Source: a virus. From it: 64,000 bases of DNA. Below are positions 24,207 through 50,455 of the stretch, piece after piece; position 1 is the first letter of the stretch; each line of letters opens with the position of its first letter. The notes below the pieces were generated by a model, which saw only the letters and a program-made list of their open reading frames with translations, made no database searches and had not been told where the DNA came from. Location: the IMG/VR virus record IMGVR_UViG_3300006920_000040, positions 1 through 64,000 of that record; one strand, 5' to 3'. Position numbers and translations under genes: made by a program.

Positions 24207-25031
24207 ATGAAACTACTATATCAAAAACAAATCTGGAATGAGTATGGCTACTCGGAATTTATCGACACTTTGAGAAACCAATTCGAGTGTGTTGAATGTG
24301 AAGTGATTCCTTTCACAGAAGAGTTAGTAGCGCCTATTGATTTTATTCCAGACTTAGTTCTGGGGTCGGGTCGTTTGGTTGACATCGCCAGAAATAATAA
24401 TTGGCCTACGTATAGATCATTCGATCCATCCGAAACCGAAGATATCAAAAAGAAACACTTCTTAAATTGTGGTGGTGGATACTTCAAGTTAACCGAAGTT
24501 GACATGATGCGCGAAGTGATTGGTAGTCGATTCGTATTTGTAAAGCCGTGCATTGAAAAAATGTTTACAGGTTGTGTGATTGATTTAGATAAACCAATTG
24601 AAGACCAAGTTCAGTTCTCGACTAGTGACGTTGACGACCCGATGGAGGAATTGGTTCTCGCGGCACCAATTCGGGAGATAAAACAAGAGTATAGAATATT
24701 CGTTGTTCGCGGCGAAATCATCACAGGTTCCCTCTATAAAGATAACGGGGTCGCTCGCTACGAACTTTTGGATGGTGTGTTTAAAGGCTCCGACGTTTAT
24801 GAATTCATCCGACATATCTCGACTATTAAGAAAGGTAAAAATCTCCTCAGGAATTTTACCGGATCTTTCGATGTCGCTCGCGTAGACGATGGATACATGA
24901 AGATTATCGAATTTAACAATCTAAATTCGGCGGGAGTGTATGCTTCGGATTATCAGAAACTCACAGAGGCCCTTCATGATGACATCCTTCTCGGATTGGG
25001 TGCTAATTTGGATTCCACAATGTTTCCTTAA
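24207..25031 (+). CDS. ATP-grasp domain protein (R2K/DUF4343-like)
   Basis: 274 residues from ATG 24207, directly behind the ligase. ATP-grasp features include FVFVKPC near 112 (ATP-binding Lys strand), EYRIFVVRGEIITGSLY near 165 and the metal-binding C-terminal GYMKIIEFNNLNSAGVYAS near 240, where Glu and Asn ligate magnesium. This spacing fits the R2K clade of short ATP-grasp proteins found in phages and polymorphic systems, which couple a carboxylate to an amine through an acyl phosphate. The substrates are unknown. A second member lies at 29.1 kb. Confidence 0.82.
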   Translation: MKLLYQKQIWNEYGYSEFIDTLRNQFECVECEVIPFTEELVAPIDFIPDLVLGSGRLVDIARNNNWPTYRSFDPSETEDIKKKHFLNCGGGYFKLTEVDMMREVIGSRFVFVKPCIEKMFTGCVIDLDKPIEDQVQFSTSDVDDPMEELVLAAPIREIKQEYRIFVVRGEIITGSLYKDNGVARYELLDGVFKGSDVYEFIRHISTIKKGKNLLRNFTGSFDVARVDDGYMKIIEFNNLNSAGVYASDYQKLTEALHDDILLGLGANLDSTMFP

Positions 25032-25041
25032 ATTCCAAAAT

Positions 25042-25953
25042 ATGAAAAAAATACTAGTAACAGGTAGCTCGGGATTCATCGGATCTCACTTGGTGAAGAA
25101 ATTGAGAGAGCAGGGTCATTTCGTGGAGGGATATGATTATACATATAACGACCAATGGTATGATTATAATGTGTCAAATGGACCAAATGAGACCAGCAAC
25201 ATACTCAATATTGGCCCCACTTTCCTTGACGAAACCGATGAACACTTTGATGTAATTTTCCACCTAGCTGCATATGTTAGTGCGAGTAAGTCTATAGAAT
25301 ACCCTTGGATTTGTAACCTTTACAATATTGGTGGGACTAACAATGTAGCCCAACTTGCGAGTGACAAGAGTCGAATGGTATTTGCTTCCTCTGCGGCAGT
25401 ATATGGTGATCAGACCAAGTGGGTTGATGGGTTGAGACAACGTAGTGGCTTTTCGGAGGAAGAAGTCTCATTGCTAGGGGATTTAAAAACACCCTATGCA
25501 AAATCTAAACTCATGGGTGAGGAAATCGTCAAAGATACCTGTAGCAATTATGCCAATCTTCGGTTCTTCAATGTTTATGGGAAGGGACAAAATCCTGCCT
25601 ATGGTGCCGTCATCCAGTCATTCATTGATGACTATAAATCACGTAGAGCTTCGACTATATTCGGTGATGGTCAACAAACCCGTGATTTCGTTCATGTTGA
25701 TGATGTGGTTGATGCTTTAATTCTCGCAGGAGACTCTACGGAGAACTTTACGGCAAATGTGGGGACTGGCGTAGGAACGACTGTCGAGAAGCTATGTGGC
25801 ATGATCTCAAGGGACCATGAGTATATTAAATATGAACCCGCTAGAGGTGGTGACCCAGTTTATTCGGTTGCCGACAATAAAAAGCTTGTGGATATGGGTT
25901 GGTCTGCTAAAGTGGATCTGAAGACAGCACTGGATAGAATGAAATTATGTTAG
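25042..25953 (+). CDS. NAD-dependent sugar-nucleotide epimerase/dehydratase
   Basis: 303 residues from ATG 25042. The Rossmann motif is TGSSGFIGSHL (7-17). The catalytic elements are ASSAAVYGD near 113 and YAKSK near 152, followed by RFFNVYGKGQNP and the DFVHVDDVV substrate loop. This is the GalE/WcaG-type extended SDR pattern, which acts on UDP- or GDP-sugars. It is ten bases behind the ATP-grasp gene in the same operon and could supply sugar nucleotides to the glycan cluster at 40-43 kb. Exact sugar unknown. Confidence 0.9.
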   Translation: MKKILVTGSSGFIGSHLVKKLREQGHFVEGYDYTYNDQWYDYNVSNGPNETSNILNIGPTFLDETDEHFDVIFHLAAYVSASKSIEYPWICNLYNIGGTNNVAQLASDKSRMVFASSAAVYGDQTKWVDGLRQRSGFSEEEVSLLGDLKTPYAKSKLMGEEIVKDTCSNYANLRFFNVYGKGQNPAYGAVIQSFIDDYKSRRASTIFGDGQQTRDFVHVDDVVDALILAGDSTENFTANVGTGVGTTVEKLCGMISRDHEYIKYEPARGGDPVYSVADNKKLVDMGWSAKVDLKTALDRMKLC

Positions 25954-35549: not shown

Positions 35550-35558
35550 AATAATTAA
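35550..35558 (+). promoter_or_regulatory. AATAATTAA element upstream of the gp6-like gene
   Basis: Exact match six bases before the ATG. The surrounding CAATAATTAAAA is nearly identical to that at 3406-3417 before the neck-like gene. Confidence 0.52.
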
Positions 35559-35564
35559 AAGATA

Positions 35565-37277
35565 ATGGCAACGGACCCGAAAGAATATTTACAATTTGAC
35601 ATTGGGTCTATTGACGCTTTGATAAAATCAAAGCTGACACCGGAATTTCCTGATGTTGCACGGGGGGGTTCTTCTGCGGCGATCCTATCGGAGGCAGTTG
35701 CTTCTACATTTTCCCTGCTCCTCTACCAACTCAATAGAACGGCATCTAATAGCTCATTCACTAAAACCAATTCACTAGAATCATTAATAAATCAAACAAA
35801 AATACTCGGGTATAATCCAATTGGCCACCATGCCAGTTCGGTATTTGTCGATATCTCGGTAAATACCATATTGTCAAACGGGAGTTATACCATACCCCGA
35901 TATACCTACATCGAAACACCTCAAGGTAAATTCTCAACAACGAGCGACCTAACCTTCACCAACGATTCCCAGTTGACCGAAAGGGTCATTTTTAATGACA
36001 TCGTAATGAAGGGCGGTCCTTATGTGGAACATGACCTCATTTTATCCGATGGTTCCAGCAATCAAAAATTACTACTCAGTATCGGTGATAATCAAGTTGA
36101 CCATGAGGATATTGACATATACGTTAAGGAACCGAATGGCATGTGGGTGCAATTCTCCCGAGTTGATAGCCTGTTCCTCTCAACCCCAGACTCGACTGAA
36201 TTCGAAGTCAGATATAATGAATTTGGATCTTACGACATTGTATTTGGTGACGGTATAAACGGGTGTCTCGTTCCCGAAGATGCCGAGATTGCAATCTATT
36301 ATCTATCGGTTAGCTCCAGTGAGGGTATATTGGATGTAGGTGAAGTGGATACCCAACCCTTCCGATTTAACACCAACAGGATCAATGCCATCATTATCGA
36401 TGTCGCAGACACCACGGGATCAGTGTTCGTCAATGATGTAAACACAAATTTCACATTCACCAACACTTCACAGTCTACACCCAAAGATGGACCCGAAAGT
36501 CTGGATGATATTAGGAGGAATGCCCCCTCCACATTCAAATCACAGAATCGATTGGTAACTAAAGAGGATTATGAATCCTTCATCAGGAACAACTTCTCGG
36601 ACTTCATATCAGATGTCCTCATTCTGGATAATGACGAGTATATGAATTCATATATAAAATATTATTCCGATCTAGGTCTCAATAAACCCTACGAAGAGAA
36701 TCGGGCACTATTCAACCAATTGAAATTCTCGTCCGCAGTAAATTTCAACAATGTGTATGTATTTGTTGTTCCGGTAATCGGGGATTACTTGATAGATATT
36801 CAAAAAAGGAATATCGTGGATCGGTTATCTAAGACCAAAACCCTATCTGCCGAGATCACACCATCCGACCCCATCTACATAAACTTCGCGGTCGCAACGC
36901 CAACAAATACCATAGAATTTTCGGACACAACAACGTCCGAAATAATCATAACAAAGACACCCAACACCACTAGAAGCGAAAGTGATCTATTGGTTGACTT
37001 TCAGGATGCACTGGTGTCTTATTTCACCGACAGAGGTAAGTCGTTCAATCAAATAATTGATGTGTCTGAGTTGACGGGCATTTTGTTATCAATTGACGGT
37101 ATACAGCACATTTCCACTAAAAACGGAACGGTAACCAATACTGGTTTGGGGTTATATGAGTGGAACCCATTTTTCCCAGAAAGGGTGACTACAGCACCAC
37201 CAACCAACAGATTCACCGGAATATTTGTCCCTAGATTTGAGTCCAACAGCATCTTTGACCGTATAACGTTCGTTTAA
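35565..37277 (+). CDS. Baseplate wedge protein, gp6-like (Baseplate J family)
   Basis: 570 residues. The segment EFGSYDIVFGDGINGCLVP near 216-235 is the conserved Baseplate_J/gp6 turn (FGDG-x-x-G). The C-terminal part holds DIRRNAPSTFKSQNRLVTKE, the second family hallmark (a P-x-x-F-x-x-Q-x-R-x-V-T motif). T4 gp6 forms the inner ring of the baseplate. Here the protein is a little shorter than T4 gp6. An AATAATTAA element is six bases from the ATG, and the next virion gene begins one base after the stop. Confidence 0.88.
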   Translation: MATDPKEYLQFDIGSIDALIKSKLTPEFPDVARGGSSAAILSEAVASTFSLLLYQLNRTASNSSFTKTNSLESLINQTKILGYNPIGHHASSVFVDISVNTILSNGSYTIPRYTYIETPQGKFSTTSDLTFTNDSQLTERVIFNDIVMKGGPYVEHDLILSDGSSNQKLLLSIGDNQVDHEDIDIYVKEPNGMWVQFSRVDSLFLSTPDSTEFEVRYNEFGSYDIVFGDGINGCLVPEDAEIAIYYLSVSSSEGILDVGEVDTQPFRFNTNRINAIIIDVADTTGSVFVNDVNTNFTFTNTSQSTPKDGPESLDDIRRNAPSTFKSQNRLVTKEDYESFIRNNFSDFISDVLILDNDEYMNSYIKYYSDLGLNKPYEENRALFNQLKFSSAVNFNNVYVFVVPVIGDYLIDIQKRNIVDRLSKTKTLSAEITPSDPIYINFAVATPTNTIEFSDTTTSEIIITKTPNTTRSESDLLVDFQDALVSYFTDRGKSFNQIIDVSELTGILLSIDGIQHISTKNGTVTNTGLGLYEWNPFFPERVTTAPPTNRFTGIFVPRFESNSIFDRITFV

Positions 37278-37278
37278 C

Positions 37279-39036
37279 ATGGCTATCGACACCCCAATTA
37301 CCCTAAACGGGACCAACTACCTAAAATTCCCCTTGGTTGACGATTTCTACCCCAAAGATAGTATTTGTGTGGATTTTGATCTAACACTACCAGATTGGAA
37401 CCAACCTTATAGTTCACAATTGGTTGGTAACTTCAAGAATCAAGGGTATGGTGTATTTTACCAGAAGGGGTTGGAACAAGTAATTAAACTGTCCATAATG
37501 GATCAGGGTAACAGTCACTTATTCTCGTTAAATAGTGGCGGCGCATTGATCTCGCAAAGATCAATGCCCCCACAGACCAATCCGGTTAATTTGACCACCC
37601 AAGCTATTGATCGGCTGGAGAATAAAGCTATATTTGACGCAGGGAATAATAAAATATTCATATTGGACACCAATAACATTTTATTGAGCGAGTTCACAGT
37701 TGTCGGGACACTATTTGACATAGCTCGTTTAGATTTCGATTCGGTCGGAAATCTCTATATTTATAACCGAGCAGAAAGCGTCCTTCTAAAATATACGAAA
37801 GCAGGACTGCTATTATCTTCAACCGCACACGCCTCAATGGACTGTAGCATGTTCGGTATCGACCGCAATGACATGCCCGTATTTTATTATGCAAACGACC
37901 ACACTCCATTGTTATTTGATTGTGAAAATTCTCACTACACGTTGTTTGGGGTCAATATCCACAAGAACGGTGTCCCCTTTTTCACGGTCGGGTCAAATTC
38001 CAACGGTATAGGTATTGATGGTGAGGATAATATATGGGTAGTTCGAAATGATAATGAGATTTTGAAGGTAACTACGGCGGGTAAGGTTCTTTTTAATAAA
38101 AAATTCCACTCCATAGAGCCGTGTGACCCAGACCCGTGCGACACATCAACAACACCGGTCAGCATATCCTTTACCCGAGAATTGACATCAGAAGGGGTTA
38201 GTGATTATACGTGGGTTATCTTAAAAAACTCAAACTACGCCCTAAAACTCAATTCCAACGGAACTACGGTGGATTGTACCCTAACCACCAGTCTCCTGAA
38301 TGTCGAGAAATTCACCGACACCTCATATTCGGCGGTCAGCGTGGGTATTGATGGTGATTTCACATCTTTCCGTTCGAAAAAGAATTTTGGCCAAAATTGC
38401 GATAATACGGACGATTCCTTAATAGTAGCTAAGATAGCCGTTGTGGGTGTCTGTGACGGTGCGGCACAGATAAACATATTGGAACATAAGGTCACTGATT
38501 TGAACGGAACGCACTCCATAAAATTCCTTTTTGATGGATCGTCAGGGGTGGGTAGTTTGGTGGTTGACGGTGTAGTCGTGGACACATTTACCCAAAAGGG
38601 GTCCATCCACTACACCGACAGTAATTTGATTCCAACGCTGGTTGGTGCTGATAGCGGGGACTACCGATCACTGAAAGAGGAGTTGGGTGACCAAAATCCA
38701 CAATATACCATTGCCACCATTGATGAACTTCTGATTTCCCGTGGGAATGGTGGGAATTTTGTGGAGCGCAGTAATACAGGTCCTCTTAGGATCGAATTAC
38801 CCACACCCAACCACATCTCATACCAAGAGACTGTCAGAGATCTTTTCTTATTTCGTTCAAATGGTTATAAATCACCCACAGTTAACTTGAAGATTTCCGA
38901 TAGTGGGTTCACCGATGTATCATCACAACTAATTATATCTGAGGATATCACAACTGTATTTGGTGATAATACACCGGTTCCCAGTAAGATTAATACAATT
39001 GGATGGGTTGAAACTGTAAGACTAAAAGATATTTAA
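37279..39036 (+). CDS. Virion protein with beta-propeller-like and lectin-like regions
   Basis: 585 residues. From about 100 to 275 there are NHL/SMP30-like propeller repeats (FDSVGNLYIYNRAESVLLKY, GIDGEDNIWVVRNDNEILKV). From about 330 to 460 a jelly-roll, LamG-like stretch ends with GSLVVDGVVVDTFT. Such regions suit a peripheral baseplate or fibre protein that touches the cell surface. It is downstream of gp6 in the same transcript, and the PKD protein follows seven bases later. Function by analogy only. Confidence 0.68.
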   Translation: MAIDTPITLNGTNYLKFPLVDDFYPKDSICVDFDLTLPDWNQPYSSQLVGNFKNQGYGVFYQKGLEQVIKLSIMDQGNSHLFSLNSGGALISQRSMPPQTNPVNLTTQAIDRLENKAIFDAGNNKIFILDTNNILLSEFTVVGTLFDIARLDFDSVGNLYIYNRAESVLLKYTKAGLLLSSTAHASMDCSMFGIDRNDMPVFYYANDHTPLLFDCENSHYTLFGVNIHKNGVPFFTVGSNSNGIGIDGEDNIWVVRNDNEILKVTTAGKVLFNKKFHSIEPCDPDPCDTSTTPVSISFTRELTSEGVSDYTWVILKNSNYALKLNSNGTTVDCTLTTSLLNVEKFTDTSYSAVSVGIDGDFTSFRSKKNFGQNCDNTDDSLIVAKIAVVGVCDGAAQINILEHKVTDLNGTHSIKFLFDGSSGVGSLVVDGVVVDTFTQKGSIHYTDSNLIPTLVGADSGDYRSLKEELGDQNPQYTIATIDELLISRGNGGNFVERSNTGPLRIELPTPNHISYQETVRDLFLFRSNGYKSPTVNLKISDSGFTDVSSQLIISEDITTVFGDNTPVPSKINTIGWVETVRLKDI

Positions 39037-39042
39037 AATAAG

Positions 39043-39762
39043 ATGACTATTTGTGTAGATAAGCGTATTGGGTATGCCAAACTGGAGACTTTTTGCTTCA
39101 GGTTGGGAGGTATTGTTGACCCTGAAGCTATAATAGACTTTGGGGATGGTTCTACCGAGGGTGTAAATGGTAGAGCGATCATATCACATCAATATGACCA
39201 ATATGGCACTTATTCGGCATGCGTCACCACTTGTCTTGAGGGTGAGATCATTTCCGAGGAATGCCAAAAGATAACAGTAAAACCCTACGTAGAGGATCGG
39301 ATTGTTTTCGACAGTTACCCTCTGAGTGGTTTCACGACGACCGACGATGGTATGAATTTCCAAGTTTCATTATCGGCCAATTGCCCACCACCCATTCGTG
39401 TAAAATTGGATCTGGTGGGGACAATTTCGCCACCTGTTTCAGAATTACCCGATACTTCTTTTCAGGACTGCTTACCCAAGCACATTATAACGGCAAACAT
39501 CCCATTTGATGTTGACACGTTCATCATAGAAAATCCCAGCCGAATAATCGTTAATGGCGAAGTTTGTGGTTGGCATGAGACATTCTGCTTCGGGTTTTAT
39601 GACGACTACCCCGCAGATAACATTATGAAGTTAACTCTGGAGCGTGACTGTAAGGATTGCTTTGATATCGATTGGGATGTTTGTGACCCTGTTTCTTCAT
39701 GTGACATCTACGGACAGGACCACTTACCCATCAGATATATCGATGAAGACTTGGGGTATTAG
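39043..39762 (+). CDS. Virion protein with PKD domain
   Basis: 239 residues, Cys-rich. Residues 22-80 form a PKD-type Ig-like domain: IIDFGDGSTEG, then HQYDQYGTYSACVTT, the diagnostic FGDG and HxYxxxGxY pair. PKD domains in phages decorate fibres and baseplates and bind glycans. The C-terminal half has six further Cys, including CKDCFDIDWDVC. It ends the baseplate and fibre transcript. Confidence 0.78.
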   Translation: MTICVDKRIGYAKLETFCFRLGGIVDPEAIIDFGDGSTEGVNGRAIISHQYDQYGTYSACVTTCLEGEIISEECQKITVKPYVEDRIVFDSYPLSGFTTTDDGMNFQVSLSANCPPPIRVKLDLVGTISPPVSELPDTSFQDCLPKHIITANIPFDVDTFIIENPSRIIVNGEVCGWHETFCFGFYDDYPADNIMKLTLERDCKDCFDIDWDVCDPVSSCDIYGQDHLPIRYIDEDLGY

Positions 39763-39763
39763 G

Positions 39764-39792
39764 TTGACAAATTCGGACAAACGACATATATA
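39764..39792 (+). promoter_or_regulatory. Sigma70-type promoter of the GT8 gene
   Basis: TTGACA at 39764-39769, 17-base spacer, TATATA at 39787-39792 (or TATATT two bases on), ATG 39801 eight bases later. The -10 context TATATTGG is shared with the ligase promoter. Confidence 0.7.
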
Positions 39793-39800
39793 TTGGTATA

Positions 39801-40433
39801 ATGATTGGCGTTACTATTAGTTCACCGAATTACAGTGAAATGACTGAAGAGTCACGGAAAGCTTTCCAGAAACATACGGGATTGGCATGTCACGTAATAC
39901 ATACAAACAATGATCACAACTATCTAGCCAAATTGCAGCTACATCGGTATTTTCAACAAACAATCGTGTTCTTCGATTCGGATTTGCGGTTTATCAGAGA
40001 TGTGGATCTACACCCATACGACAATAGAGAGGAATTTTTTGGAGTCAAAGATTGTAGTGGACACCCACTTAATGCCGCCACTTTCGAGGAGTCATTTTCA
40101 TACAAAGATTGCCAAAATCTAAAAATGAACCCCAACACTTATATCAATGGTGGTTTTATGATTTTCAACCGAAAACACCATGGGGTTATGATGAATGATG
40201 CGCTGAATCATATTAGGCAAACTCCGGAGGACTTTGCCGATTTCGGTGAACAGTCTGCCGTGAACTATCAATTGCAAACTTCTGATGTAAAACTCGAACT
40301 ACTGCCCGTTAACTACAACGTCATGGTTGGTGGGTCGGCATCTGTCGAATCCATATGTAGCGACCCCTACGCAATACACCCCGCTGGAATGCCTTATGCT
40401 GATAAGCAGGGGTGGTTTGATGAGTTCTCCTAG
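39801..40433 (+). CDS. GT8-like glycosyltransferase
   Basis: 210 residues. IVFFDSDLRFIRDV near 54-67 has the D-x-D sugar-nucleotide/Mn motif, and YINGGFMIFNRKHHG near 113 is the NGG-x-M-x-x-N acceptor loop of GT8-type retaining transferases. The C-terminal LLPVNYNV and AIHPAGMP complete the pattern. It transfers a sugar from a nucleotide sugar to an unknown acceptor. The ATG lies eight bases after a TATATA -10 element. It converges on the minus-strand glycan operon with a four-base overlap. Confidence 0.8.
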   Translation: MIGVTISSPNYSEMTEESRKAFQKHTGLACHVIHTNNDHNYLAKLQLHRYFQQTIVFFDSDLRFIRDVDLHPYDNREEFFGVKDCSGHPLNAATFEESFSYKDCQNLKMNPNTYINGGFMIFNRKHHGVMMNDALNHIRQTPEDFADFGEQSAVNYQLQTSDVKLELLPVNYNVMVGGSASVESICSDPYAIHPAGMPYADKQGWFDEFS

Positions 40434-41110
40434 GGATTGGCAAGTTTCCAAGTTTCGTTGTCTGCATCGTCTCTAATACTGAATTCGGACACATGATCAG
40501 TCAACCACGGGGTGTGCTCGATGACATAAATATTAAACAACTTCAAGTTTTCTGGGTTAGATAGGAAATTATCAATTTCGCAAGTCAGTGGAAATGCGTC
40601 TATGAGTCGCTGAAATACCTTTCGGGGCTTAACCAAATAACTAAACATCCCCGTGCAGCAGGGTTTGGTTATTTTAGAAATACCCTTGGTCGTTGACCCT
40701 TGGTTTGCACTTCCACATTTTATGTCCCAGTATGACAAATGTATGAAATCCCAGTCATCAGGAATTTCTATTTCGGACAAATATTCGAAAACATTTTCAT
40801 GAATTGAAACATCATCCTCCAGAATCATCACAAAATCATCCTCATTGGGGCATTGGCCTATTGCTCCCAATATCATACTCAAATGAGAATAACACACGGC
40901 TTTGCTACCCTTAAGGTGTGTCAGGTCACCGTCCCATCGACCTCGGGTCCAATTTGAAGGAACTTGTTCAACCCTACCATTCAACCCGTAATGTACATGC
41001 ATGGGTGCTGCCTCAGAAACACTACAAGGTAATCGCTCCACGAACTCCTGTAATCTTTTCGTGGATTCGTCGTCGTCGAGCGTTAGAGTATAAATGGCTT
41101 TTGGTTTCAT
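40430..41110 (-). CDS. GT25-like glycosyltransferase (LPS-type)
   Basis: 226 residues from ATG 41110, chosen because it overlaps the upstream stop as ATGA. Features are the early MKPKAIYTLTLDD strand, GSKAVCYSHLSMILGA near 84 (the conserved GC/SH helix) and MILEDDVSI near 109 with the catalytic acidic triad. These match the GT25 family that adds sugars to lipopolysaccharide. Last gene of the four-gene minus operon that starts at 43.1 kb. Confidence 0.8.
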   Translation of the reverse strand: MKPKAIYTLTLDDDESTKRLQEFVERLPCSVSEAAPMHVHYGLNGRVEQVPSNWTRGRWDGDLTHLKGSKAVCYSHLSMILGAIGQCPNEDDFVMILEDDVSIHENVFEYLSEIEIPDDWDFIHLSYWDIKCGSANQGSTTKGISKITKPCCTGMFSYLVKPRKVFQRLIDAFPLTCEIDNFLSNPENLKLFNIYVIEHTPWLTDHVSEFSIRDDADNETWKLANP

Positions 41111-41892
41111 AATTGTAAGAAGGTTTCTGGTTGGTTGGTGACAAACCAACACATGTTATCGGATCGCAATGGACCGACATGGTATATGACGGACCCTCTA
41201 GCTCTCGCCGGATCGGTGATGCTGGATTTGCTTGAGGAAGTAACTATAACTGGTATTTTATTGAGTGTCAAGAAGTTAGACATAAAAAATCTCATCTCTA
41301 ATAACGAAATCCTGTCTAGATCATTGCTCAACTCATTACCCAACCCCTCCACATATGGGATTTTATGAGAATCCAAAATTTCTTTTATTTCACCTCTGCG
41401 AGAATCTGACATTAAAAACAAAGAATCGGTGGGTTCCGTCTCAATACCCCCCCATATTTCAATTACATGATGAACAAAATCCCCCAGAGAACCAGAAGCT
41501 TCCCCCAAACCTCTCCAGTGCGCGGCCATAGGGAATGTCCTTGTGTCGGGTTTGGCTTTAAATGAATTTAAAATTCGATCATAATTTTGTTTCAACACAT
41601 CTATAGATGAGATAACCCCATTCTGTGGATACCAATACGTGGAATAGGCATCCTCATCACAGACACACCCCCAATGTCTTTCGGCATCCATATGCCCAAC
41701 ATCCCCCGAGAAATAATTGCACACATCAAACCCCAAGTCGTCCTTAAATATCCACCTGAATGGAAACGGCATATGTTGGTTTACCTGCCAGTTTAAAACA
41801 GAACGACCCGACGAGGGGGCTCCATTCACCAACTCATTCACCCTATTACCCAAACCACCATAACCAACTGCGATTTTATTTTTACAATCCAT
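41107..41892 (-). CDS. Possible fucosyltransferase-like protein
   Basis: 261 residues. GYGGLGNRVNELVNG at the N-terminus, AAHWRGLGEASG near 123 (an H-x-R donor-like motif) and a SLFLMSDSRR strand near 155 recall NodZ/GT11/GT23-type fucosyltransferases. A later VTSSSKSSITDPARA segment fits their last motif loosely. It lies between GT25 and DUF5672 genes with overlaps on both sides, which supports a glycan role. The family call is tentative. Confidence 0.55.
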   Translation of the reverse strand: MDCKNKIAVGYGGLGNRVNELVNGAPSSGRSVLNWQVNQHMPFPFRWIFKDDLGFDVCNYFSGDVGHMDAERHWGCVCDEDAYSTYWYPQNGVISSIDVLKQNYDRILNSFKAKPDTRTFPMAAHWRGLGEASGSLGDFVHHVIEIWGGIETEPTDSLFLMSDSRRGEIKEILDSHKIPYVEGLGNELSNDLDRISLLEMRFFMSNFLTLNKIPVIVTSSSKSSITDPARARGSVIYHVGPLRSDNMCWFVTNQPETFLQL

Positions 41893-42553
41893 AATGCGGG
41901 TTTTTCTCGGTCCATGATGAGATGTCAGTTTGCTTCAAGTCATGAAACCCGAATTGATCAGTGTATACCCCACATTCCTTAGAGAATTTTTTGGCAAGTT
42001 CCAACGGCGCAAACTCTACACCATAACCCTCCAGTATTTTCTTATACCACCCACTCATAACAACATCTTCGGGGTGGTAGTGGGGCATGGTTCCGTCTCG
42101 GGATAGTGTTTGTGTCAAATCCAACAATTTTTTACTCCGTAAACTAAATCCACCATTACCGACAATATGATTGTGCCCAACACTGTCCACCCCCATCATA
42201 GCGAACAATTCGGCACTTTCCACAAAGATCGGTGCCCCGATATAATCATAATCCAAAAAACGAGAGTCCCAAGCCGATGGGTTTAATAAACACCCATCAT
42301 ACTGAACAACCAATGCAAAATCCGTGTCAACATAATCCGATAGATTCTGTATACAGAATCTAGAATATTCCTCGATAGATCCTATTTGGGGTATCTCGAC
42401 CCAACGAGGGTCATCATTCACAATGTGGGATAATAATTTAATGTCCCCGAAATCAACCGAAACTGTTGATATATCCAGTGCTTTTTGGATACGAGGTATA
42501 TCAATACAATCAACGCCAATTAAGGTTACATTATCTAGCGTAACCGAACTCAT
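41882..42553 (-). CDS. DUF5672-type putative glycosyltransferase
   Basis: 223 residues. The pattern SRFCIQNLSDYVDTDFALVV, QYDGCLLNPSAWDSRFLDYD, YIGAPIF and HIVGNGGFSLRSKKLLD is that of DUF5672, a family linked to glycosyltransferases. The Q-x-D-G and GNGGFSLR elements resemble GT-A donor and acceptor loops. Its stop overlaps the following gene by 11 bases; its start shares one base with the methyltransferase stop. Confidence 0.85.
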   Translation of the reverse strand: MSSVTLDNVTLIGVDCIDIPRIQKALDISTVSVDFGDIKLLSHIVNDDPRWVEIPQIGSIEEYSRFCIQNLSDYVDTDFALVVQYDGCLLNPSAWDSRFLDYDYIGAPIFVESAELFAMMGVDSVGHNHIVGNGGFSLRSKKLLDLTQTLSRDGTMPHYHPEDVVMSGWYKKILEGYGVEFAPLELAKKFSKECGVYTDQFGFHDLKQTDISSWTEKNPHYGL

Positions 42554-43077
42554 TATTTTTCGGCAGGTTTGATGTAATATACAATGACATCATCATAACG
42601 ACCAGTGAACCCCCGACCATCATACACACCAGAGCGCCACCCATGGGGGCATTTGTTGAGAAACTGGGAGATTTCTCTATCCGGATCTTGTATATCCTCA
42701 ATCACAATGACACCACCTGCTGCCGTAAGCGGTAGTGCTAGTTCGAGAAATTCGTTTTGATGCAGCCTTTCGTGGGAACCGTCATCAATCAGTAGATCAA
42801 AAAAGGACCCCTTTAGTTTGGGCATTACACTCTGGAACCCGTCATGAAAGAATTTAAAGTTAGGGAGATTACAAACCCCATCATCCAAATCATCAATATC
42901 ACAACCAACCACACTCTCTATACTGTCCGCCTCCAACATAGCCTTTATAGACCCACCCTGTCGGACACCGACTTCGAAAACGGTTTTTACATTACGGTGT
43001 TTTATAATATCAGTGTAGAACCTACCGTAAGAATGTTTGGTCTCCTTGTCGCTACCGAATTCTGTAAATCTTAACAT
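42553..43077 (-). CDS. Class I SAM-dependent methyltransferase (small-molecule/sugar type)
   Basis: 174 residues from ATG 43077; the frame begins with TTG two codons earlier. HSYGRFYTDIIK near 15 and TVFEVGVRQGGSIKAML near 32-48 form the SAM-binding motif I. VVGCDID is the acidic strand end, and DLLIDDGSH near 92 is the metal-binding site typical of TylF/MycE-like O-methyltransferases acting on sugars. Leader of the glycan operon; the AATAATTAA element is eight bases upstream. A terminal methylation of a phage- or host-surface glycan is inferred. Confidence 0.82.
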   Translation of the reverse strand: MLRFTEFGSDKETKHSYGRFYTDIIKHRNVKTVFEVGVRQGGSIKAMLEADSIESVVGCDIDDLDDGVCNLPNFKFFHDGFQSVMPKLKGSFFDLLIDDGSHERLHQNEFLELALPLTAAGGVIVIEDIQDPDREISQFLNKCPHGWRSGVYDGRGFTGRYDDVIVYYIKPAEK

Positions 43078-43085
43078 AAGCAATG

Positions 43086-43094
43086 TTAATTATT
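43086..43094 (-). promoter_or_regulatory. AATAATTAA element of the glycan operon
   Basis: Exact minus-strand match eight bases before the methyltransferase ATG, preceded by CC as at the gp6-like gene. Confidence 0.5.
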
Positions 43095-43167
43095 GGGGTA
43101 TGTATTTAGTTCAATGGGGTTCTTCCGTTTTTTTAATATATTGTGTTGATTACTAAATATAAGTATT

Positions 43168-43497
43168 ATGAGTAATATTGAAGAAACAAAAGATGTGATC
43201 AAGCTTATCGCAACCCTCGCGAAGGCATTCAACGATGCTAATGAAGACGGTAAGGTCAATGCGGGTGATATCGGAACTCTCATCCAAGTCCTCCCAGCAA
43301 TCGGACCAGCCCTCAATGGCATCAATGAGATCGATGACGAATTGAAGGATCTGGATGGAGCGGAGCTTGTCGAACTTGAGGATGCAGTTAAAGATGTGAT
43401 TGGAATCGTTGCCGATGACAAATATGTTGACGTTGCGGCACATGCACTTAAAGCTGGAATCGAAATCTTCGAGATCGTGAAGCTTATTAGAGGGTAA
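43168..43497 (+). CDS. Small acidic protein with EF-hand-like loop
   Basis: 109 residues, acidic and helical. DANEDGKVNAGD at 24-35 follows the canonical EF-hand loop (D-x-N-x-D-G-x-V-x-x-x-D), though the last position is Asp, not the usual Glu. The rest alternates Leu/Ile/Val with acidic residues. It stands alone between divergent and convergent genes, with a strong terminator directly behind it and an AT-rich promoter region in front. Codon choice with many C/G-ending codons suggests high expression. A minor virion or calcium-binding role is inferred. Confidence 0.7.
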   Translation: MSNIEETKDVIKLIATLAKAFNDANEDGKVNAGDIGTLIQVLPAIGPALNGINEIDDELKDLDGAELVELEDAVKDVIGIVADDKYVDVAAHALKAGIEIFEIVKLIRG

Positions 43498-43520
43498 CCC
43501 TACACAAAACCATTTAAATC

Positions 43521-43556
43521 AAAAGAGGAGATCGTGAATGATCTCCTCTTTTTTAT
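43521..43556. terminator. Strong bidirectional Rho-independent terminator
   Basis: A 13-bp stem (AAAAGAGGAGATC / GATCTCCTCTTTT, 43521-43533 and 43540-43552) with loop GTGAAT, flanked by A and T tracts. It ends the EF-hand-like gene on plus and the ART-zincin gene, which stops at 43553, on minus. Confidence 0.9.
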
Positions 43557-45415
43557 TTGCCCATCAACCCAAGGATACTCTTACGGTGATTTGGTGGTAG
43601 CTCTAAAAACTTCTCCACACCAGTCGCCCATATTTCATCATCATTGGACAATCCGTATTCGTCCCAACCAACGATGGCGCTCAGGTTTTCGCGAAGCTTA
43701 TTTTTATCCTCACCCGATAAGTTGTGAGCAGCAGTAGGTAGTGTATTGTGCTTATACAGCTTATTCGTCACACTGAACAGGTAGTCTTTAATATCCATCA
43801 AGATGTCGCTATCGCCATTCTTGACACGCTCGATGTAGTTGCCCTGTATTTCTTCGAGATATTCGGTGGGGAATTCCTCACTATATTTCTCCGATTCCTC
43901 GGAAGCATACCACATGTCCTTAACCGTAGGATACATGTCCGTGGTGATCATCTGCATTATCCTACCAACCACCTTATCAATCAACCTATCATCATCAAAT
44001 CGAGGTAACTCAAGACGATCCCATTCCTCTTTGATAATCCTCTTGATACTTCCCTCATAACTTTCAACCCCATTGAGGGTATTTTTCGAGGTGGGCTTTT
44101 TAACCGGTTCGCCGCCAAACCCATCGTCATCACCGGACGTGGGGGTGTTGCCATAAACCAACCAACCGATCATATTTGTGATCTTTTTAGACAAACCGTC
44201 AGTGTCCATCTTGTCCTGTAACTCATGTTCCAAATTGGAAAACTCCCTATCTTCCTCGCTACCCGCCCAATGGTCGGAGTCAGTATCCAAGTCATTCTCC
44301 ATGTGGTCACCACCAATCATCTCTTGATAGTAGTCGTAGACTGCCCTCTTAAAACCTTTACTATTATTGAACATCCATAAATGCGCCCACTCATGGACGA
44401 CTATATTGACGAAATGATGGGAGCGGATGGTTTCGTTTAAGGAATCATCAATGTCGATAAATTTGGAACCGACAGACATGTGCTTGGCATGTGACCTAGA
44501 AGCCCAACCCCCAACACCCCCACCGGTATTTTGGTTAACAGTATCCGACACATCCTTGATGACAATATTGGCATGCATCTTGGGGAACCCCATCTTGGTA
44601 ATATTGCGAAGGGCAATACTCAAATCCTTTTTAATCTGCGGGATTTTTTTCTCAAAACCTGACATCTCATCATCGGAGAAATCGGATTTATCTACAAAGA
44701 CCGAAAACATCTGAACATCCACAAGGTGATTAAGGTTTTTCTTTTTTCGAAATTTAGAATTCTCTGTCAAGAAAACACCATAACCCTGTGGATCAATGGA
44801 ACTTGTAACTAGACCCAATGCTCGATCAAATTTGGATTCCTTGATAGAGTTGGAGTATTTATCGAATCTACGGGAAAGGGGGGTTATGCCACCCCTTTTA
44901 TCATAAGTGACGGGGTCTGCGGATTTGATTTGACGAGGATCAAATACGGCATATTCGATAATATCACCGCTCTCTACATCTTTGTTTATGGATGAGGAGA
45001 ATCCACGCTCTTTAAGATCATCTACCGTTTCGTCTGTAGAAAACTTCTCAACGGATTTACCTAACCGCAAATATGCGCGTTGGACAACCGGAACACCACC
45101 CCCTCTATCTGATGATAGTTGCGCATACATATCTGCAAAATTCTTATCTATCGCAAAAAAAACAGCAGGTCTAACCTCAATGCCCTTCGCATTACTCCCA
45201 ATCTGAGGTATGAAAACATCAGGTATTTCTCCTGATGTCCCATGAAACCCCTCCACACTATAACCTGCGCTCTTTGCAGCACCATCAACCATACCCTGTA
45301 GTTCTTCGGCATTCTCTTCAGGGTATTGCGCAAGCTCCATATATCGCTCATCACCACCCTGAACTGGTTGTTCGGATTCTATCAAAAACTTAACATATTC
45401 CTTGAAGGAGTTCAT
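43553..45415 (-). CDS. ADP-ribosyltransferase-like/zincin polyvalent protein, candidate packaged effector
   Basis: 620 residues. Residues 1-15 (MNSFKEYVKFLIESE) fit a capsid-targeting tag with an L-I-E|S cleavage site. Residues about 50-165 resemble the ART fold of polyvalent proteins: VEGFHGTSGE, AVFFAIDKNFADMYA, DIIEYAVFDPRQIKSA. A zinc-protease motif, IVVHEWAHLW, lies near 338-347 in a region with no other known domain; the C-terminal 250 are charged. ADP-ribosylation plus proteolysis of host targets after injection is inferred. A bidirectional terminator lies just beyond its stop. The HExxH is clear; the ART call is by pattern. Confidence 0.75.
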   Translation of the reverse strand: MNSFKEYVKFLIESEQPVQGGDERYMELAQYPEENAEELQGMVDGAAKSAGYSVEGFHGTSGEIPDVFIPQIGSNAKGIEVRPAVFFAIDKNFADMYAQLSSDRGGGVPVVQRAYLRLGKSVEKFSTDETVDDLKERGFSSSINKDVESGDIIEYAVFDPRQIKSADPVTYDKRGGITPLSRRFDKYSNSIKESKFDRALGLVTSSIDPQGYGVFLTENSKFRKKKNLNHLVDVQMFSVFVDKSDFSDDEMSGFEKKIPQIKKDLSIALRNITKMGFPKMHANIVIKDVSDTVNQNTGGGVGGWASRSHAKHMSVGSKFIDIDDSLNETIRSHHFVNIVVHEWAHLWMFNNSKGFKRAVYDYYQEMIGGDHMENDLDTDSDHWAGSEEDREFSNLEHELQDKMDTDGLSKKITNMIGWLVYGNTPTSGDDDGFGGEPVKKPTSKNTLNGVESYEGSIKRIIKEEWDRLELPRFDDDRLIDKVVGRIMQMITTDMYPTVKDMWYASEESEKYSEEFPTEYLEEIQGNYIERVKNGDSDILMDIKDYLFSVTNKLYKHNTLPTAAHNLSGEDKNKLRENLSAIVGWDEYGLSNDDEIWATGVEKFLELPPNHRKSILGLMGK

Positions 45416-45424
45416 TGATTGTAA

Positions 45425-45760
45425 TTATACCACGGGCTTCTCACCATCAGGACGCCAAATCAGGCGATCCTCACACTTTGGTTTATATGGTTTCCGACCA
45501 GCCTGTAATAGCTCTTTAACTCTAACCGGATCATCAAATCTAGAATTGAGGAAAAGGTTTGCGAAGTGTTTGAACAACTCACCACCCTCCTCCTTATAGA
45601 AAAAGATCAAGCCCATGAAGCGATTCTCACGAAGAGTCTTGAGTTGTTTTTTGATATGTTCATCGTCAACCAAATCCGTAGGTGAATAATATTCATCTCG
45701 CCATCTCGTTTTAAGGTTATGGATATAATCTTCGTCAGTGGTTTCTAGATATTTTGTCAT
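45425..45760 (-). CDS. Hypothetical protein, 111 aa
   Basis: 111 residues from ATG 45760, coupled to the stop of the small upstream ORF (CTATGA). Charged, helical, with FMGLIFFYKEEGGELFKHFA near 53-72 and a basic C-terminal region. It ends nine bases before the polyvalent gene. Not recognised. Confidence 0.6.
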   Translation of the reverse strand: MTKYLETTDEDYIHNLKTRWRDEYYSPTDLVDDEHIKKQLKTLRENRFMGLIFFYKEEGGELFKHFANLFLNSRFDDPVRVKELLQAGRKPYKPKCEDRLIWRPDGEKPVV

Positions 45761-45861
45761 AGTAATTTGTTTGGGATGATTTTGGAATTCACACAAACAC
45801 CGTCCCTCTTGAAGACGAGAGTTTTAAATTGTTCTCGGGTTAACAGTTTAACATTGTTCAT
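45757..45861 (-). CDS. Very small protein, 34 aa, HNH-like N-terminus
   Basis: 34 residues, flanked on both sides by ATGA overlaps, so it should be translated. Its text LLTREQFKTLVFKRDGVC looks like the first helix of HNH endonucleases (a REQF...V-x-x-RD-x-x-x-C start), but the sequence stops 15 residues later with no His-Asn-His core. It may be a decayed or minimal remnant, or a chance similarity. Confidence 0.45.
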   Translation of the reverse strand: MNNVKLLTREQFKTLVFKRDGVCVNSKIIPNKLL

Positions 45862-46589
45862 TTTAACAATCCCCCATAACCATATAAGAGGACTTCGCAA
45901 GCAAAATCATTATCGAAAGTATAACCCACAGTGTCCTCAAGTTTATCCACTTTTTTGATTTGCTCTTCACACAGTTTCGAAACTTCGGAAAGCTCAAATT
46001 CTTCTGGATGCGTCTTCAGCCGAAGACAGATATCAAACACGGGAGTTCCTTTCAAGGAAACCGGAAACACCCCCGTTTTGAAAAACTGCTCACCACAATA
46101 AGCCAGACGGATCATGTGAGAGACGTTTTTGGGCGAGAAACCATGTTTGTCTAGGGCGGCTTTACGAGCACCACCCAAATGCCCCGTGCGGACACCCCGA
46201 GCGTGTTTCGACTCATTAAAGACATGGCCCTTCAAGCTGTGCATGAGTGCCTTAGAGTCCATTAGGCGTTTATAATTCTTCTGGATCATGTCAAAGACCG
46301 GTGTCTTCATCCTGAAAGAATCCTCTGGTGCAAATAGCGCCTCGATTGAATTCGTATTTGTCCTTTTCAGTTTCTTCAGGAAGTAATTTAATTCGAAGTA
46401 AGCATAATCTTCTTCGTCGCTCTGGTTTACTTTGGTCTCATCCTTTTTAAACCCGAATAGTGCTGGTGTTGAATCTGTTAAATACACACCTCTCAGATCA
46501 ATATCCGAGTTTACCGTGTTCAAATTATACAGGTGACTTCCGCCCAAGTATTCGCAGACTATGTTTTTTCCAAATTTTGATGTTCTCAT
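45858..46589 (-). CDS. RlaP-like predicted nucleotidyltransferase
   Basis: 243 residues from ATG 46589, fixed by the ATGA overlap with the upstream stop. YLGGSHLYNLNTVNSDIDLR near 15-34 is the GS-x(n)-D-x-D polymerase-beta motif of the PF10127 family (RlaP). The remaining helical domain includes FNESKHARGVRTGHLGGAR. Members of this family are linked to RNA repair with RNA ligases. Nearby genes of similar theme are a HAD_SAK protein (50.7 kb), a kinase (57.2 kb) and a second NTase (59.6 kb). Confidence 0.85.
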   Translation of the reverse strand: MRTSKFGKNIVCEYLGGSHLYNLNTVNSDIDLRGVYLTDSTPALFGFKKDETKVNQSDEEDYAYFELNYFLKKLKRTNTNSIEALFAPEDSFRMKTPVFDMIQKNYKRLMDSKALMHSLKGHVFNESKHARGVRTGHLGGARKAALDKHGFSPKNVSHMIRLAYCGEQFFKTGVFPVSLKGTPVFDICLRLKTHPEEFELSEVSKLCEEQIKKVDKLEDTVGYTFDNDFACEVLLYGYGGLLK

Positions 46590-46792
46590 CGTTTTAGTTT
46601 TCTTGATTCTTTCTTCCACGCACGGGCGATTAGATTGGCTCTATTTTTATGTTGAGCATCTTCCGTATAACCGGTGTAGCCAAAAGCGACGAAACGCCTT
46701 TCGGTACAGAATGGGCTTAATTTATCTAGATTTAACAAATTAAAATACGGTGACATTTCATCTGCTCGGGAGTTACACGAACCCACCACCAT
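46586..46792 (-). CDS. Hypothetical basic protein, up to 68 aa
   Basis: The frame gives 68 residues from ATG 46792 or 56 from ATG 46756. The promoter TTGACT-17-TATGGT overlaps the first ATG, which favours a downstream start, but the exact one is undecided. The C-terminal half is basic (HKNRANLIARAWKKESRKLK) and may bind nucleic acid. ATGA-coupled to the RlaP gene. Confidence 0.5.
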   Translation of the reverse strand: MVVGSCNSRADEMSPYFNLLNLDKLSPFCTERRFVAFGYTGYTEDAQHKNRANLIARAWKKESRKLKR

Positions 46793-48802: not shown

Positions 48803-48803
48803 A

Positions 48804-49415
48804 TTACTTAAATGCCCTGAAGGTTAGAGATGTGCGAGGTCCACAAGGTTGCCCGTGTTTCGGGATGCGGTGTAAGTGGGTCTCCTGATAATGTGGGGGC
48901 ATGATGAATAGACTACCTTCAGGAAGAAGAATTCTTTGTTCCTTTGGAACAAGTCCCGATTCACCAAACGGCTTCACCCAAATTTCACGCTCTGCCCCAA
49001 ATGACATGACGGCAATGGGTGCCTCTGGGTCCATTGCCTCGAAGTCATCCGCATGCCAACCAAGATGTTGTTTTTCCGTATCATAACGATTCAGGAAACA
49101 AGCACTAAAATTAACATCCAGTCTACGATTCAATGTGGACATGAGATTTTTAATAATGGGTGACATTGGGTTACTGTCATAAAACTCCTCACCCGTATTT
49201 CGGTTTCCGTAAGAATACGTCCTCTGAGTTTCGGACATGAAATATTCGTGTCTTGCTGATTTCCGTGTTAACCAATCCAAACCATCAAGTTCTCGTTTAA
49301 TGGCATCCGTCACATCCACACTTGGCTTTTCGAATTTCGTGATCAAAATTGTCTCACAATGCGTAGTAACGGAATCACCCAATCTAGCTTTTTTTAATTC
49401 TTCTATTGTTTTCAT
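48804..49415 (-). CDS. AlkB-like 2-oxoglutarate/Fe(II) dioxygenase
   Basis: 203 residues. Iron ligands are GWHADD near 119 (H-x-D) and the distal His in ETHLHRIP. The C-terminal RTSLTFR is the 2-oxoglutarate and Arg motif of AlkB. NRYDTEKQHLGWH is the conserved substrate-lid region. It demethylates damaged bases in DNA or RNA in known members. The gene starts with an ATGA overlap on rmlB. Confidence 0.95.
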   Translation of the reverse strand: MKTIEELKKARLGDSVTTHCETILITKFEKPSVDVTDAIKRELDGLDWLTRKSARHEYFMSETQRTYSYGNRNTGEEFYDSNPMSPIIKNLMSTLNRRLDVNFSACFLNRYDTEKQHLGWHADDFEAMDPEAPIAVMSFGAEREIWVKPFGESGLVPKEQRILLPEGSLFIMPPHYQETHLHRIPKHGQPCGPRTSLTFRAFK

Positions 49416-50455
49416 TTTTTATCGAATAATCGTTGCATGGAGTTCTCCACCCACTGTTGGTTATTAATATACCATTTGACAGTTTTGTCAAGACCTGTTT
49501 CAAAGTTTTCTTCGGGAGTCCACCCTAAGTCTGTTTCAATTTTAATAGGATTGATGGCATAACGCTGATCATGCCCCAGACGGTCCTCAACGAAAGTCAG
49601 GTGACTCTTACCTATAAGCTCGGGCATTTCTTTGTAAACGATTTTTAAGATCTTGCTGACAATGTCGATATTGTTTCTTTCACAACGACCACCGATAACA
49701 TAAGATTCACCGATAACACCATTGGTTAAAACCGCAACGAGCGCCTTACAGTGATCTTTGACATACAACCAATCTCGGATATTCTGACCGTTCCCATAAA
49801 TCGGAAGATCTTCACCTGCCAACACCTTCCCAATCATCAATGGAATCAACTTCTCAGGGCATTGGTTTGGCCCATAGTTATTTGAACAGTTGGTGGTGAT
49901 GACAGGAAGTCCATATGTTTTGAAATATGACCGAACCACGAAATCACTAGATGCCTTAGAAGCCGCATAGGGGCTGTTTGGAGCGTAGGGCGTCTCTTCG
50001 GTAAATGGTGCATCAGATTCACTCAAAAGCTCACCATACACCTCGTCAGTGCTTACATGGATGAATCTATGATCAATACTGGGGTCCGGTTGAGCACCAA
50101 TATGGTTTTTGAAGCACTCCAGAAGAATTGCCGTGCCCTTCACATTAGTCTCCATGAAGATATCCGGACCTTCGATAGAATTATCAACGTGGCTTTCCGC
50201 CGCAAGGTGGAAAATATGAGTGATATCGTAGAAATCCATATAATGTGCAATTTCTTCTTTATCACAGATATCAACCCAACGGTTGTGGTATCGGCTATCC
50301 TCTTTGATACTATGGTTGATATTTTTGGGGTTACCCGCATAGGTCAAGGCGTCGATATTAACTAAGTTGTCGATCTCTAAGCCGGATTCGATTAGGAGAT
50401 ATTTGATGAGGTTTGATCCAATAAACCCACACCCACCTGTTACCATTATATTCAT
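49412..50455 (-). CDS. rmlB: dTDP-glucose 4,6-dehydratase
   Basis: 347 residues, typical RmlB length. The NAD motif TGGCGFIGSNL (6-16), HLAAESHVDNSI near 83, the active-site STDEVYGE near 133 and YAASKASSDF near 161 are all present. It makes dTDP-4-keto-6-deoxyglucose, feeding rhamnose or other deoxy-sugar routes. An RmlD-like gene is at 12 kb, but I find no RmlA or RmlC here. A candidate promoter (TTTGCA, 17 nt, TAAATA) is nine bases upstream. Confidence 0.95.
   Translation of the reverse strand: MNIMVTGGCGFIGSNLIKYLLIESGLEIDNLVNIDALTYAGNPKNINHSIKEDSRYHNRWVDICDKEEIAHYMDFYDITHIFHLAAESHVDNSIEGPDIFMETNVKGTAILLECFKNHIGAQPDPSIDHRFIHVSTDEVYGELLSESDAPFTEETPYAPNSPYAASKASSDFVVRSYFKTYGLPVITTNCSNNYGPNQCPEKLIPLMIGKVLAGEDLPIYGNGQNIRDWLYVKDHCKALVAVLTNGVIGESYVIGGRCERNNIDIVSKILKIVYKEMPELIGKSHLTFVEDRLGHDQRYAINPIKIETDLGWTPEENFETGLDKTVKWYINNQQWVENSMQRLFDKK

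What the first reader, a model, noticed from the sequence alone, without database searches (positions are those of the whole stretch)
39801..43077. Phage glycan cluster with four or five transferases plus methyltransferase
GT8, GT25, a possible fucosyltransferase, DUF5672 and a sugar-type methyltransferase sit together, while RmlB (49.4 kb), an RmlD-like enzyme (12 kb) and an epimerase (25 kb) are spread over the window. The operon has the AATAATTAA (virion-type) element, so it may decorate the virion rather than alter host LPS.
Basis: inference. Interest (0 to 1): 0.55.

Follow-up and report, generated by a model that had tools for sequence, protein, structure and literature searches.

The report
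Phage sugar-attachment gene cluster beside tail
A T4-like phage carries five small genes that probably build a methylated sugar chain; clusters of this kind are already known in aquatic phages, and the gene signals here hint, without proving it, that the sugars go on the phage particle rather than on the host cell.

Summary
The cluster is real but less certain than written. It is a four-gene overlapping operon on the minus strand (methyltransferase, DUF5672, fucosyltransferase-like, GT25-like; 43077 to 40430). A convergent GT8-like gene (39801-40433) follows the gp6/tail genes. Profiles confirm only DUF5672 and the methyltransferase; GT25 is weak; GT8 and fucosyltransferase rest on motifs. RmlB is genuine, but RmlA and RmlC were not found. 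A relative (G001, gp6 49% identical) keeps the RmlD-like gene while lacking all five cluster genes, RmlB and the epimerase, so the module looks accessory and the RmlD-like gene does not belong to it. AATAATTAA is real (8 sites, 1.65 expected). In a looser form it lies about 12 nt before start codons in both phages, often of virion genes, but also of NrdA: it suggests late co-expression and does not prove it. DUF5672 sits in large sugar clusters of Synechococcus phages, and GT-rich regions of aquatic T4-like phages are published. Best reading: an accessory, probably late module making a short methylated glycan, acceptor somewhat more likely virion than host surface. A new member of a known kind.

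The parts
42553..43077 (-). Class I methyltransferase, sugar-type O-methyltransferase likely; first gene of the operon (ATG at 43077, an in-frame TTG at 43083)
   Evidence: PF13578 E=1e-7 over cut-off; phrog_21658 methyltransferase E=1.3e-8; solved relative 8ia9 E=8.3e-4 over residues 92-129
41882..42553 (-). DUF5672 protein, inferred GT-A-type glycosyltransferase
   Evidence: PF18922 E=1.2e-16; 32-39% identity to proteins in phage loci, one carrying a glyco_tranf_GTA_type note
41107..41892 (-). Fucosyltransferase-like protein (motif level only)
   Evidence: Ordered motifs GGLGNR, HWR, MSDS, SSSKSS; no credible family hit
40430..41110 (-). GT25-like glycosyltransferase (weak), ATG at 41110 chosen over the GTG at 41152
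   Evidence: PF01755 E=0.02 below cut-off; phrog_2835 E=3.2e-5; LEDD motif
39801..40433 (+). GT8-like protein (motif level only), convergent with the operon, last gene of the gp6/tail gene run
   Evidence: DSD, INGG, EQS, LPVNYN in order; no family hit
43086..43094 (-). AATAATTAA start-proximal element of the operon
49412..50455 (-). RmlB, dTDP-glucose 4,6-dehydratase: possible donor supply, not shown to be linked
   Evidence: TIGR01181 427 bits over cut-off 365.1
24940..25953 (+). NAD-dependent nucleotide-sugar epimerase, possible donor supply, not shown to be linked
   Evidence: PF01370 E=7.9e-42; phrog_540 E=1.1e-60; absent from G001
39043..39762 (+). PKD-domain protein of the tail gene run; a candidate acceptor by position only
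   Evidence: PF18911 E=4.4e-4, below cut-off; homologue in G001 lies elsewhere, upstream of NrdA
35565..37277 (+). Baseplate wedge gp6, head of the plus-strand run, with its own AATAATTAA at 35550
   Evidence: phrog_219 E=2e-38

Best explanation
An accessory, soluble glycan-building module in the tail region of a T4-like myovirus. Four glycosyltransferase-like enzymes and a sugar-type O-methyltransferase would assemble a short oligosaccharide from nucleotide sugars (RmlB possibly giving dTDP-4-keto-6-deoxyglucose, the host giving the rest) and methylate it. Expressed with virion genes, it more likely decorates a virion protein, perhaps a product of the adjacent tail genes, than the host surface. 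Shown: the genes, their overlapping order, the element, and the module's absence from a relative. Inferred: the GT8 and fucosyltransferase identities, timing, donor and acceptor.
For: Profiles for DUF5672 and methyltransferase; overlapping operon; absence from G001 of 26 of 26 tiled ORFs between 39801 and 55965 (some of these ORFs may not be genes) while gp6, the 37279 gene, NrdA and NrdB are kept; the element, shared in position by orthologous gp6, gp25, adaptor-like and two further genes of both phages; no membrane segment in the five proteins; DUF5672 in sugar clusters of phages RB11-B and S-H68 and next to glycosyltransferases, methyltransferases and epimerases in viral contigs. Precedent for virion glycans in mycobacteriophages: passages of PMC11256854 and PMC12619734.
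Against: NrdA carries the element in both phages, and in G001 so do a resolvase-like and an endonuclease-like gene (named by eye), so it does not mark virion genes alone. GT8 and fucosyltransferase calls rest on motifs chosen after reading the proteins. No acceptor is identifiable. Comparable clusters are read as LPS modifiers in print. G001 may be incomplete.
Confidence: 0.45

Rival explanations
1. Host-surface modification: the enzymes add or alter sugars on host LPS core or O-chain during infection and hinder other phages from attaching.
For: Published reading of cyanophage and pelagimyophage clusters, with GT8 the commonest family in pelagimyophages and GTs in their tail-fibre region (PMC7824862 section 3.4.10 read whole; passages of PMC7029224, and PMC9602691). 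GT25 and GT8 families are linked to LPS synthesis (Pfam title of PF01755; PMC7029224 passage).
Against: The element shared with virion genes suggests late expression, late for superinfection exclusion (inference). No flippase, lipid-carrier transferase or membrane protein among the five, though cytoplasmic enzymes could still act on LPS core.
Confidence: 0.35
2. DNA modification: sugars are put on modified bases of the phage DNA against restriction.
For: RmlB lies in a tight gene run with an AlkB-family 2OG oxygenase and an N4/N6 DNA methylase; passages in PMC12619734 name DNA glucosylation as a phage GT role.
Against: The cluster itself is 5 kb away from that run; four different GT-like proteins plus a sugar methyltransferase are more than simple base glucosylation needs (inference). 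I made no dedicated search for base-hydroxymethylating enzymes.
Confidence: 0.05
3. Non-functional or filler cargo carried by a large genome.
For: Absent from the relative; PMC3037559 raises 'stuffer DNA' for cyanophage LPS genes (passage).
Against: All five frames are intact, the four genes overlap tightly and the operon carries the phage's own start element.
Confidence: 0.06

Closest known systems
Sugar clusters of Synechococcus phages RB11-B and S-H68 (annotated records)
   Same: DUF5672 relative (34% identity) beside several glycosyltransferases, fucosyltransferase-type genes, GT25, methyltransferases and nucleotide-sugar enzymes
   Different: About 20 genes with their own RmlC-type and cytidylyltransferase genes there; five genes here, and the GT8-like, GT25-like and fucosyltransferase-like proteins had no match in those records at E<=0.1
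Glycosyltransferases in the tail-fibre hypervariable region of pelagimyophages (PMC7029224)
   Same: GT genes, GT8 the commonest, placed with tail genes of T4-like phages (passages)
   Different: No sequence comparison with those genomes was made here
Jumbo cyanophage 'capsular polysaccharide modification' clusters (PMC7824862)
   Same: Mixed GT families with NAD-dependent epimerase/dehydratases, sporadic between related phages (section 3.4.10)
   Different: Smaller set; no sugar kinase or nucleotidyltransferase found among the five or by the RmlA-type search
Virion glycosylation of mycobacteriophages Che8 and Rita (Freeman 2023 and others, not read; passages of PMC11256854 and PMC12619734)
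   Same: Phage-encoded glycosyltransferases, no membrane step needed for a virion acceptor (inference)
   Different: No homology tested; acceptor unknown here
Gtr serotype-conversion systems of temperate phages (recalled)
   Same: Phage-borne glycosyltransferases
   Different: No membrane-spanning protein among the five and no GtrA/GtrB-type hit

Membership tests
Aquatic T4-like phage glycan cluster | Several glycosyltransferase families with sugar-modifying enzymes, contiguous | tested here: met
   DUF5672 and methyltransferase firm, GT25 weak, two more by motif only; genes overlap
Aquatic T4-like phage glycan cluster | Accessory: sporadic between related phages | tested here: met
   No match in relative G001 at E<=1e-4; one relative only, possibly incomplete
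Aquatic T4-like phage glycan cluster | Modifies the host surface | not testable with these tools
   Needs LPS profiling
Glycosyltransferase family 8 (PF01501) | Match to the family profile | tested here: not met
   No hit for the protein at E<=1 nor in the record; works-like claim rests on ordered motifs
Glycosyltransferase family 25 (PF01755) | Match over the family's cut-off | tested here: inconclusive
   E=0.02, 15.2 of 24 bits; E=6.3e-4 for one genome, not over cut-off
Fucosyltransferase superfamily (GT11/NodZ/O-FucT type) | Match to a family profile | tested here: not met
   No such hit for the protein at E<=1 in Pfam; PF10250 not in the record
Fucosyltransferase superfamily (GT11/NodZ/O-FucT type) | Ordered motifs G-L-G-N-R/Q, H-x-R, S-D, S-S-x-S (recalled) | tested here: inconclusive
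   Present; pattern hits 4 of 1851 other ORFs, all four GT11 by Pfam, but it was written after reading the protein and it misses the O-fucosyltransferase-annotated protein of L006
DUF5672 (PF18922) | Match over the family's cut-off | tested here: met
   61.2 of 24.4 bits
Gtr serotype-conversion system | Flippase GtrA, bactoprenol transferase GtrB and a membrane transferase | tested here: not met
   No such family hit among the five; highest 19-residue hydropathy 1.52, below the 1.8 used
Virion glycosylation system (mycobacteriophage type) | Glycan on virion protein dependent on the phage enzymes | not testable with these tools
   Needs mass spectrometry
dTDP-rhamnose pathway RmlABCD | All four steps encoded | tested here: not met
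   RmlB present and RmlD-like far below cut-off; PF00908 and PF00483 not found in the 70,189-base record, which may be a fragment

The most novel reading that the evidence does not exclude
A late-class, soluble five-enzyme pathway that builds an O-methylated deoxysugar chain on the phage's own tail or baseplate proteins (for example the PKD-domain protein next to it). That would be tail glycosylation in a T4-like phage, and would mean that at least some 'LPS clusters' of such phages are virion-decoration clusters.
Probability: 0.35. Interest if true: 0.55.

Novelty: new member of a known kind. Interest (0 to 1): 0.27.

Why it matters
Glycosyltransferase clusters recur in aquatic T4-like phages, and the passages I read treat them as host-LPS modifiers by inference or leave their function open. 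This locus offers a handle on timing: if the element shared with virion genes proves to be a late signal, clusters that carry it can be told from those that do not, and the question of virion or host acceptor becomes testable.

Tried and rejected
Rejected: one five-gene operon (strands differ). Rejected: the RmlD-like gene at 12 kb as a cluster partner (kept in G001). Rejected: the element as strictly virion-specific (NrdA and GNAT-like genes in the window; NrdA and a resolvase-like gene, the latter named by eye, in G001).

Led nowhere: AlphaFold on the fucosyltransferase-like and GT8-like proteins without alignments gave pLDDT 35.0 and 31.4, so no fold search was made. Single-sequence hhalign of the five proteins against ten phage targets gave probabilities of 0.05-2.89, no power; the GT25-like protein against four phage GT25 relatives gave 0.43. 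Relatives of the GT8-like, GT25-like and fucosyltransferase-like proteins: none in phage records at E<=0.1; none in viral contigs for the GT8-like and fucosyltransferase-like ones (GT25-like not scanned); none in genome contigs for the fucosyltransferase-like one (the other two not scanned); in 42 records at E<=0.1 one 33-residue match (E=0.006) for the fucosyltransferase-like and none for the other two. These scans find close relatives only, and searches had no positive control. RmlB relatives, to guess the host: the 80 kept loci are 48-55% identical and spread over several phyla by their titles, no host call. Solved structures: none for the GT8-like, fucosyltransferase-like and GT25-like proteins at E<=10; the DUF5672 profile gave one hit at E=0.87. 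Sigma-70 promoter scan at chance level, 29 found against 27.3. The T4-late-like CTAAATA precedes 4 of 48 starts against 0.22 expected, this operon and RmlB among them, but it was one of 12 patterns tried; in G001 I only listed its sites, uncounted.

Rows dropped before counts: 85 DUF5672 loci were reduced to 42 at 70% identity, with 240 neighbour ORFs within three genes; 144 of those 240, mostly the nearest two on each side and from 41 of the 42 loci (L076 left out), were scanned, and each tally shows only the 25 commonest families (of 62 and 86). Start-element counts used 48 hand-picked window genes and 67 ATG ORFs of at least 110 aa in G001. Records searched for PF01501, PF10250 and PF01755 were 33 chosen handles.
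Full report
What is there. The window is 64.0 of 70.2 kb of a virus record. It belongs to a T4-like myovirus: gp6 (35565-37277, phrog_219 E=2e-38), gp25 (33015-33452, PF04965 E=9.5e-8), a tail collar fibre protein (13170-13700), and class Ia ribonucleotide reductase NrdA and NrdB. The 20 listed phage matches of gp6 are 26-27% identical and come from cyanophages and T4-like enterophages. The DNA at 37000-46000 has no megablast match in 50,697 phage records.

The cluster. Four minus-strand genes overlap end to end: methyltransferase 43077-42553, DUF5672 42553-41882 (1 nt overlap), fucosyltransferase-like 41892-41107 (11 nt), GT25-like 41110-40430 (4 nt). The GT8-like gene 39801-40433 runs the other way and meets the operon tail to tail, overlapping by 4 nt. 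It follows gp6, 37279-39036 and the PKD-domain protein 39043-39762 on the same strand with gaps of 1, 6 and 38 nt.

How sure each name is. DUF5672 (PF18922, E=1.2e-16) and the methyltransferase (PF13578, E=1e-7) pass Pfam's cut-offs. Against solved structures the methyltransferase gave 9 distinct sequences at E<=1: first demethylmacrocin O-methyltransferase 8ia9 (E=8.3e-4), then mostly spermidine or thermospermine synthases, and 3ssm, listed as 'Methyltransferase' and by recall the macrolide-sugar enzyme MycE (E=0.09). The 8ia9 match covers the IDDGSH stretch. The GT25-like protein is weak (PF01755 E=0.02, below cut-off; phrog_2835 E=3.2e-5). The GT8-like protein has no hit in Pfam at E<=1, nor in PHROGs or NCBIfam at E<=0.1; the fucosyltransferase-like protein has none in Pfam and only sub-threshold unrelated hits in the other two. 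Both carry ordered motifs that 0 of 100,000 shuffles of the same protein reproduce. The fucosyltransferase pattern hits 4 of 1851 other ORFs, all four GT11 by Pfam, yet misses the O-fucosyltransferase-annotated protein of L006; the GT8 pattern hits none of the 1851. Both patterns were written after reading the proteins, so the shuffles flatter them.

Sugar supply. RmlB is real (TIGR01181, 427 bits over 365.1). RmlC (PF00908) and RmlA-type (PF00483) genes were not found in the record, while the same searches rang in 11 and 14 of 14 control genomes. The RmlD-like gene scores 31.8 of 224 bits. So the record shows at most part of a dTDP-deoxysugar pathway, and host precursors would be needed.

Accessory status. 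Relative G001 (IMGVR_UViG_3300038299_000097, 74,815 bases, gp6 49% identical) shares with the window gp6, gp25, tail-tube, tail-collar and adaptor-like genes, NrdA and NrdB, and, named by eye, clamp-loader-like and DHFR-like genes. It has no match at E<=1e-4 for 26 of 26 tiled ORFs between 39801 and 55965, nor for the 25-kb epimerase, but does have the RmlD-like gene (49%) and, in another place, the PKD protein (36%). Some tiled ORFs may not be genes. Family searches agree for DUF5672 and RmlB-type enzymes. G001 may be incomplete.

The element. AATAATTAA occurs 8 times against 1.65 expected; 7 of 48 gene starts have it within 20 nt upstream, against 0.18 expected over 60 nt. In G001 the exact 9-mer occurs 3 times, against 4 for the reversed control, so it is not enriched there by count; but all three lie just before an ATG. 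Relaxed to NTAATTA(A/T), 15 of 34 window sites and 24 of 66 G001 sites have an ORF start 8-25 nt downstream, against 15.7% of random window positions. The 24 G001 sites serve 22 ORFs. The distance from the first base of the 8-mer to the start codon is 11-13 nt for 8 of 15 and 18 of 24. Six orthologue pairs carry it in both phages: 3421 (adaptor-like), 8891, NrdA, gp25, 33453 and gp6. In G001 it also precedes homologues of the tail-tube, tail-collar, PKD, 5044 and 2566 genes. So it is a shared start-proximal signal well represented on virion genes, with NrdA a conserved exception. Before this operon the distance is 10 nt to an in-frame TTG or 16 nt to the ATG. GGAG occurs within 20 nt of 2 of 48 window starts, and GGAG, GAGG or AGGA before 3 of 67 G001 starts: Shine-Dalgarno sites look rare.

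Context elsewhere. DUF5672 relatives lie in roughly 20-gene sugar clusters of Synechococcus phages RB11-B and S-H68 with GT2, GT11, GT17, GT25, fucosyltransferase-type, methyltransferase and nucleotide-sugar genes. Of 144 neighbour ORFs scanned, 15 match Glycos_transf_2, 12 Glyco_transf_11, 10 Methyltransf_23, 9 Epimerase and 7 Methyltransf_24; a few match terminase, portal or HNH endonuclease families instead. A relative of the window's methyltransferase is the next gene after DUF5672 in L064 and L039. Among 1851 ORFs of the fetched loci at E<=0.01, the DUF5672 query matched 86, the methyltransferase query 11, the other three none.

Mechanism and acceptor. The five proteins look soluble (highest 19-residue hydropathy 1.52) and none is a flippase or lipid-carrier transferase by profile. 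They could build a short chain on a cytoplasmic acceptor: a virion protein, LPS core or DNA. The element and the place behind the tail genes favour the virion; published opinion favours LPS (PMC7824862, section 3.4.10 read whole; PMC7029224 and PMC9602691, passages), while PMC3037559 leaves function open (passages). Virion glycans are reported for mycobacteriophages (passages of PMC11256854 and PMC12619734; the original, Freeman 2023, was not held). I put virion at 0.45 and host surface at 0.35.

Novelty. GT-rich accessory clusters in aquatic T4-like phages, GT8 in the tail-fibre region included, are published. One paper of the held library contains 'DUF5672', seen only in the listing and on another subject by its title. 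This is a new member of a known kind.

Noticed in passing
43553-45415 (-), 63398-63787 (-) and the rest of the record to 70189 (L096): A run of genes whose proteins begin alike (MNSFKEYVKFLIE, MISFQAYFLTE, MQSFKEYFLTE and similar), recalling T4 capsid-targeting sequences cut after [LI]xE (recalled); one carries a sub-cut-off ADP-ribosyltransferase hit (PF18760 E=3.5e-6), one is GNAT-like. 11 of 360 Met starts fit a pattern written after looking, shuffled mean 2.7, largest 8; 7 of the 11 lie between 63398 and the record's end. Possibly a set of internal proteins injected with the DNA.
   Followed up: partly
Window-wide and G001 (L092-L095): A start-proximal NTAATTA(A/T) element at a near-fixed 11-13 nt from start codons in two distant phages that show few Shine-Dalgarno sites: a late promoter with a very short leader, or a translation signal.
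   Followed up: partly
48068-50455 (-): RmlB lies in a tight gene run with an AlkB-family 2OG oxygenase (PF13532 E=1.7e-17) and an N4/N6 DNA methylase (PF01555 E=2.3e-35).
   Followed up: no
43168-43552 (+): Small protein with a dockerin/EF-hand-like stretch (PF00404 E=0.0016, below cut-off), divergent from the sugar operon and closed by a 14-pair terminator-like hairpin at 43521-43552.
   Followed up: no
45858-46619 and 50712-51203 (-): Two RNA-repair-type genes, RlaP (PF10127 E=2.7e-10) and HAD_SAK_2 (PF18143 E=4.4e-18).
   Followed up: no
L002 16612-18198 (-): A thymidylate-synthase-like ORF of 528 aa that seems, by eye, to hold a long in-frame insertion; not tested.
   Followed up: no
33453-34577 (-): A gene between gp25 and gp6 is on the minus strand in the window but on the plus strand with them in L002 (35% identity): a local inversion.
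   Followed up: no
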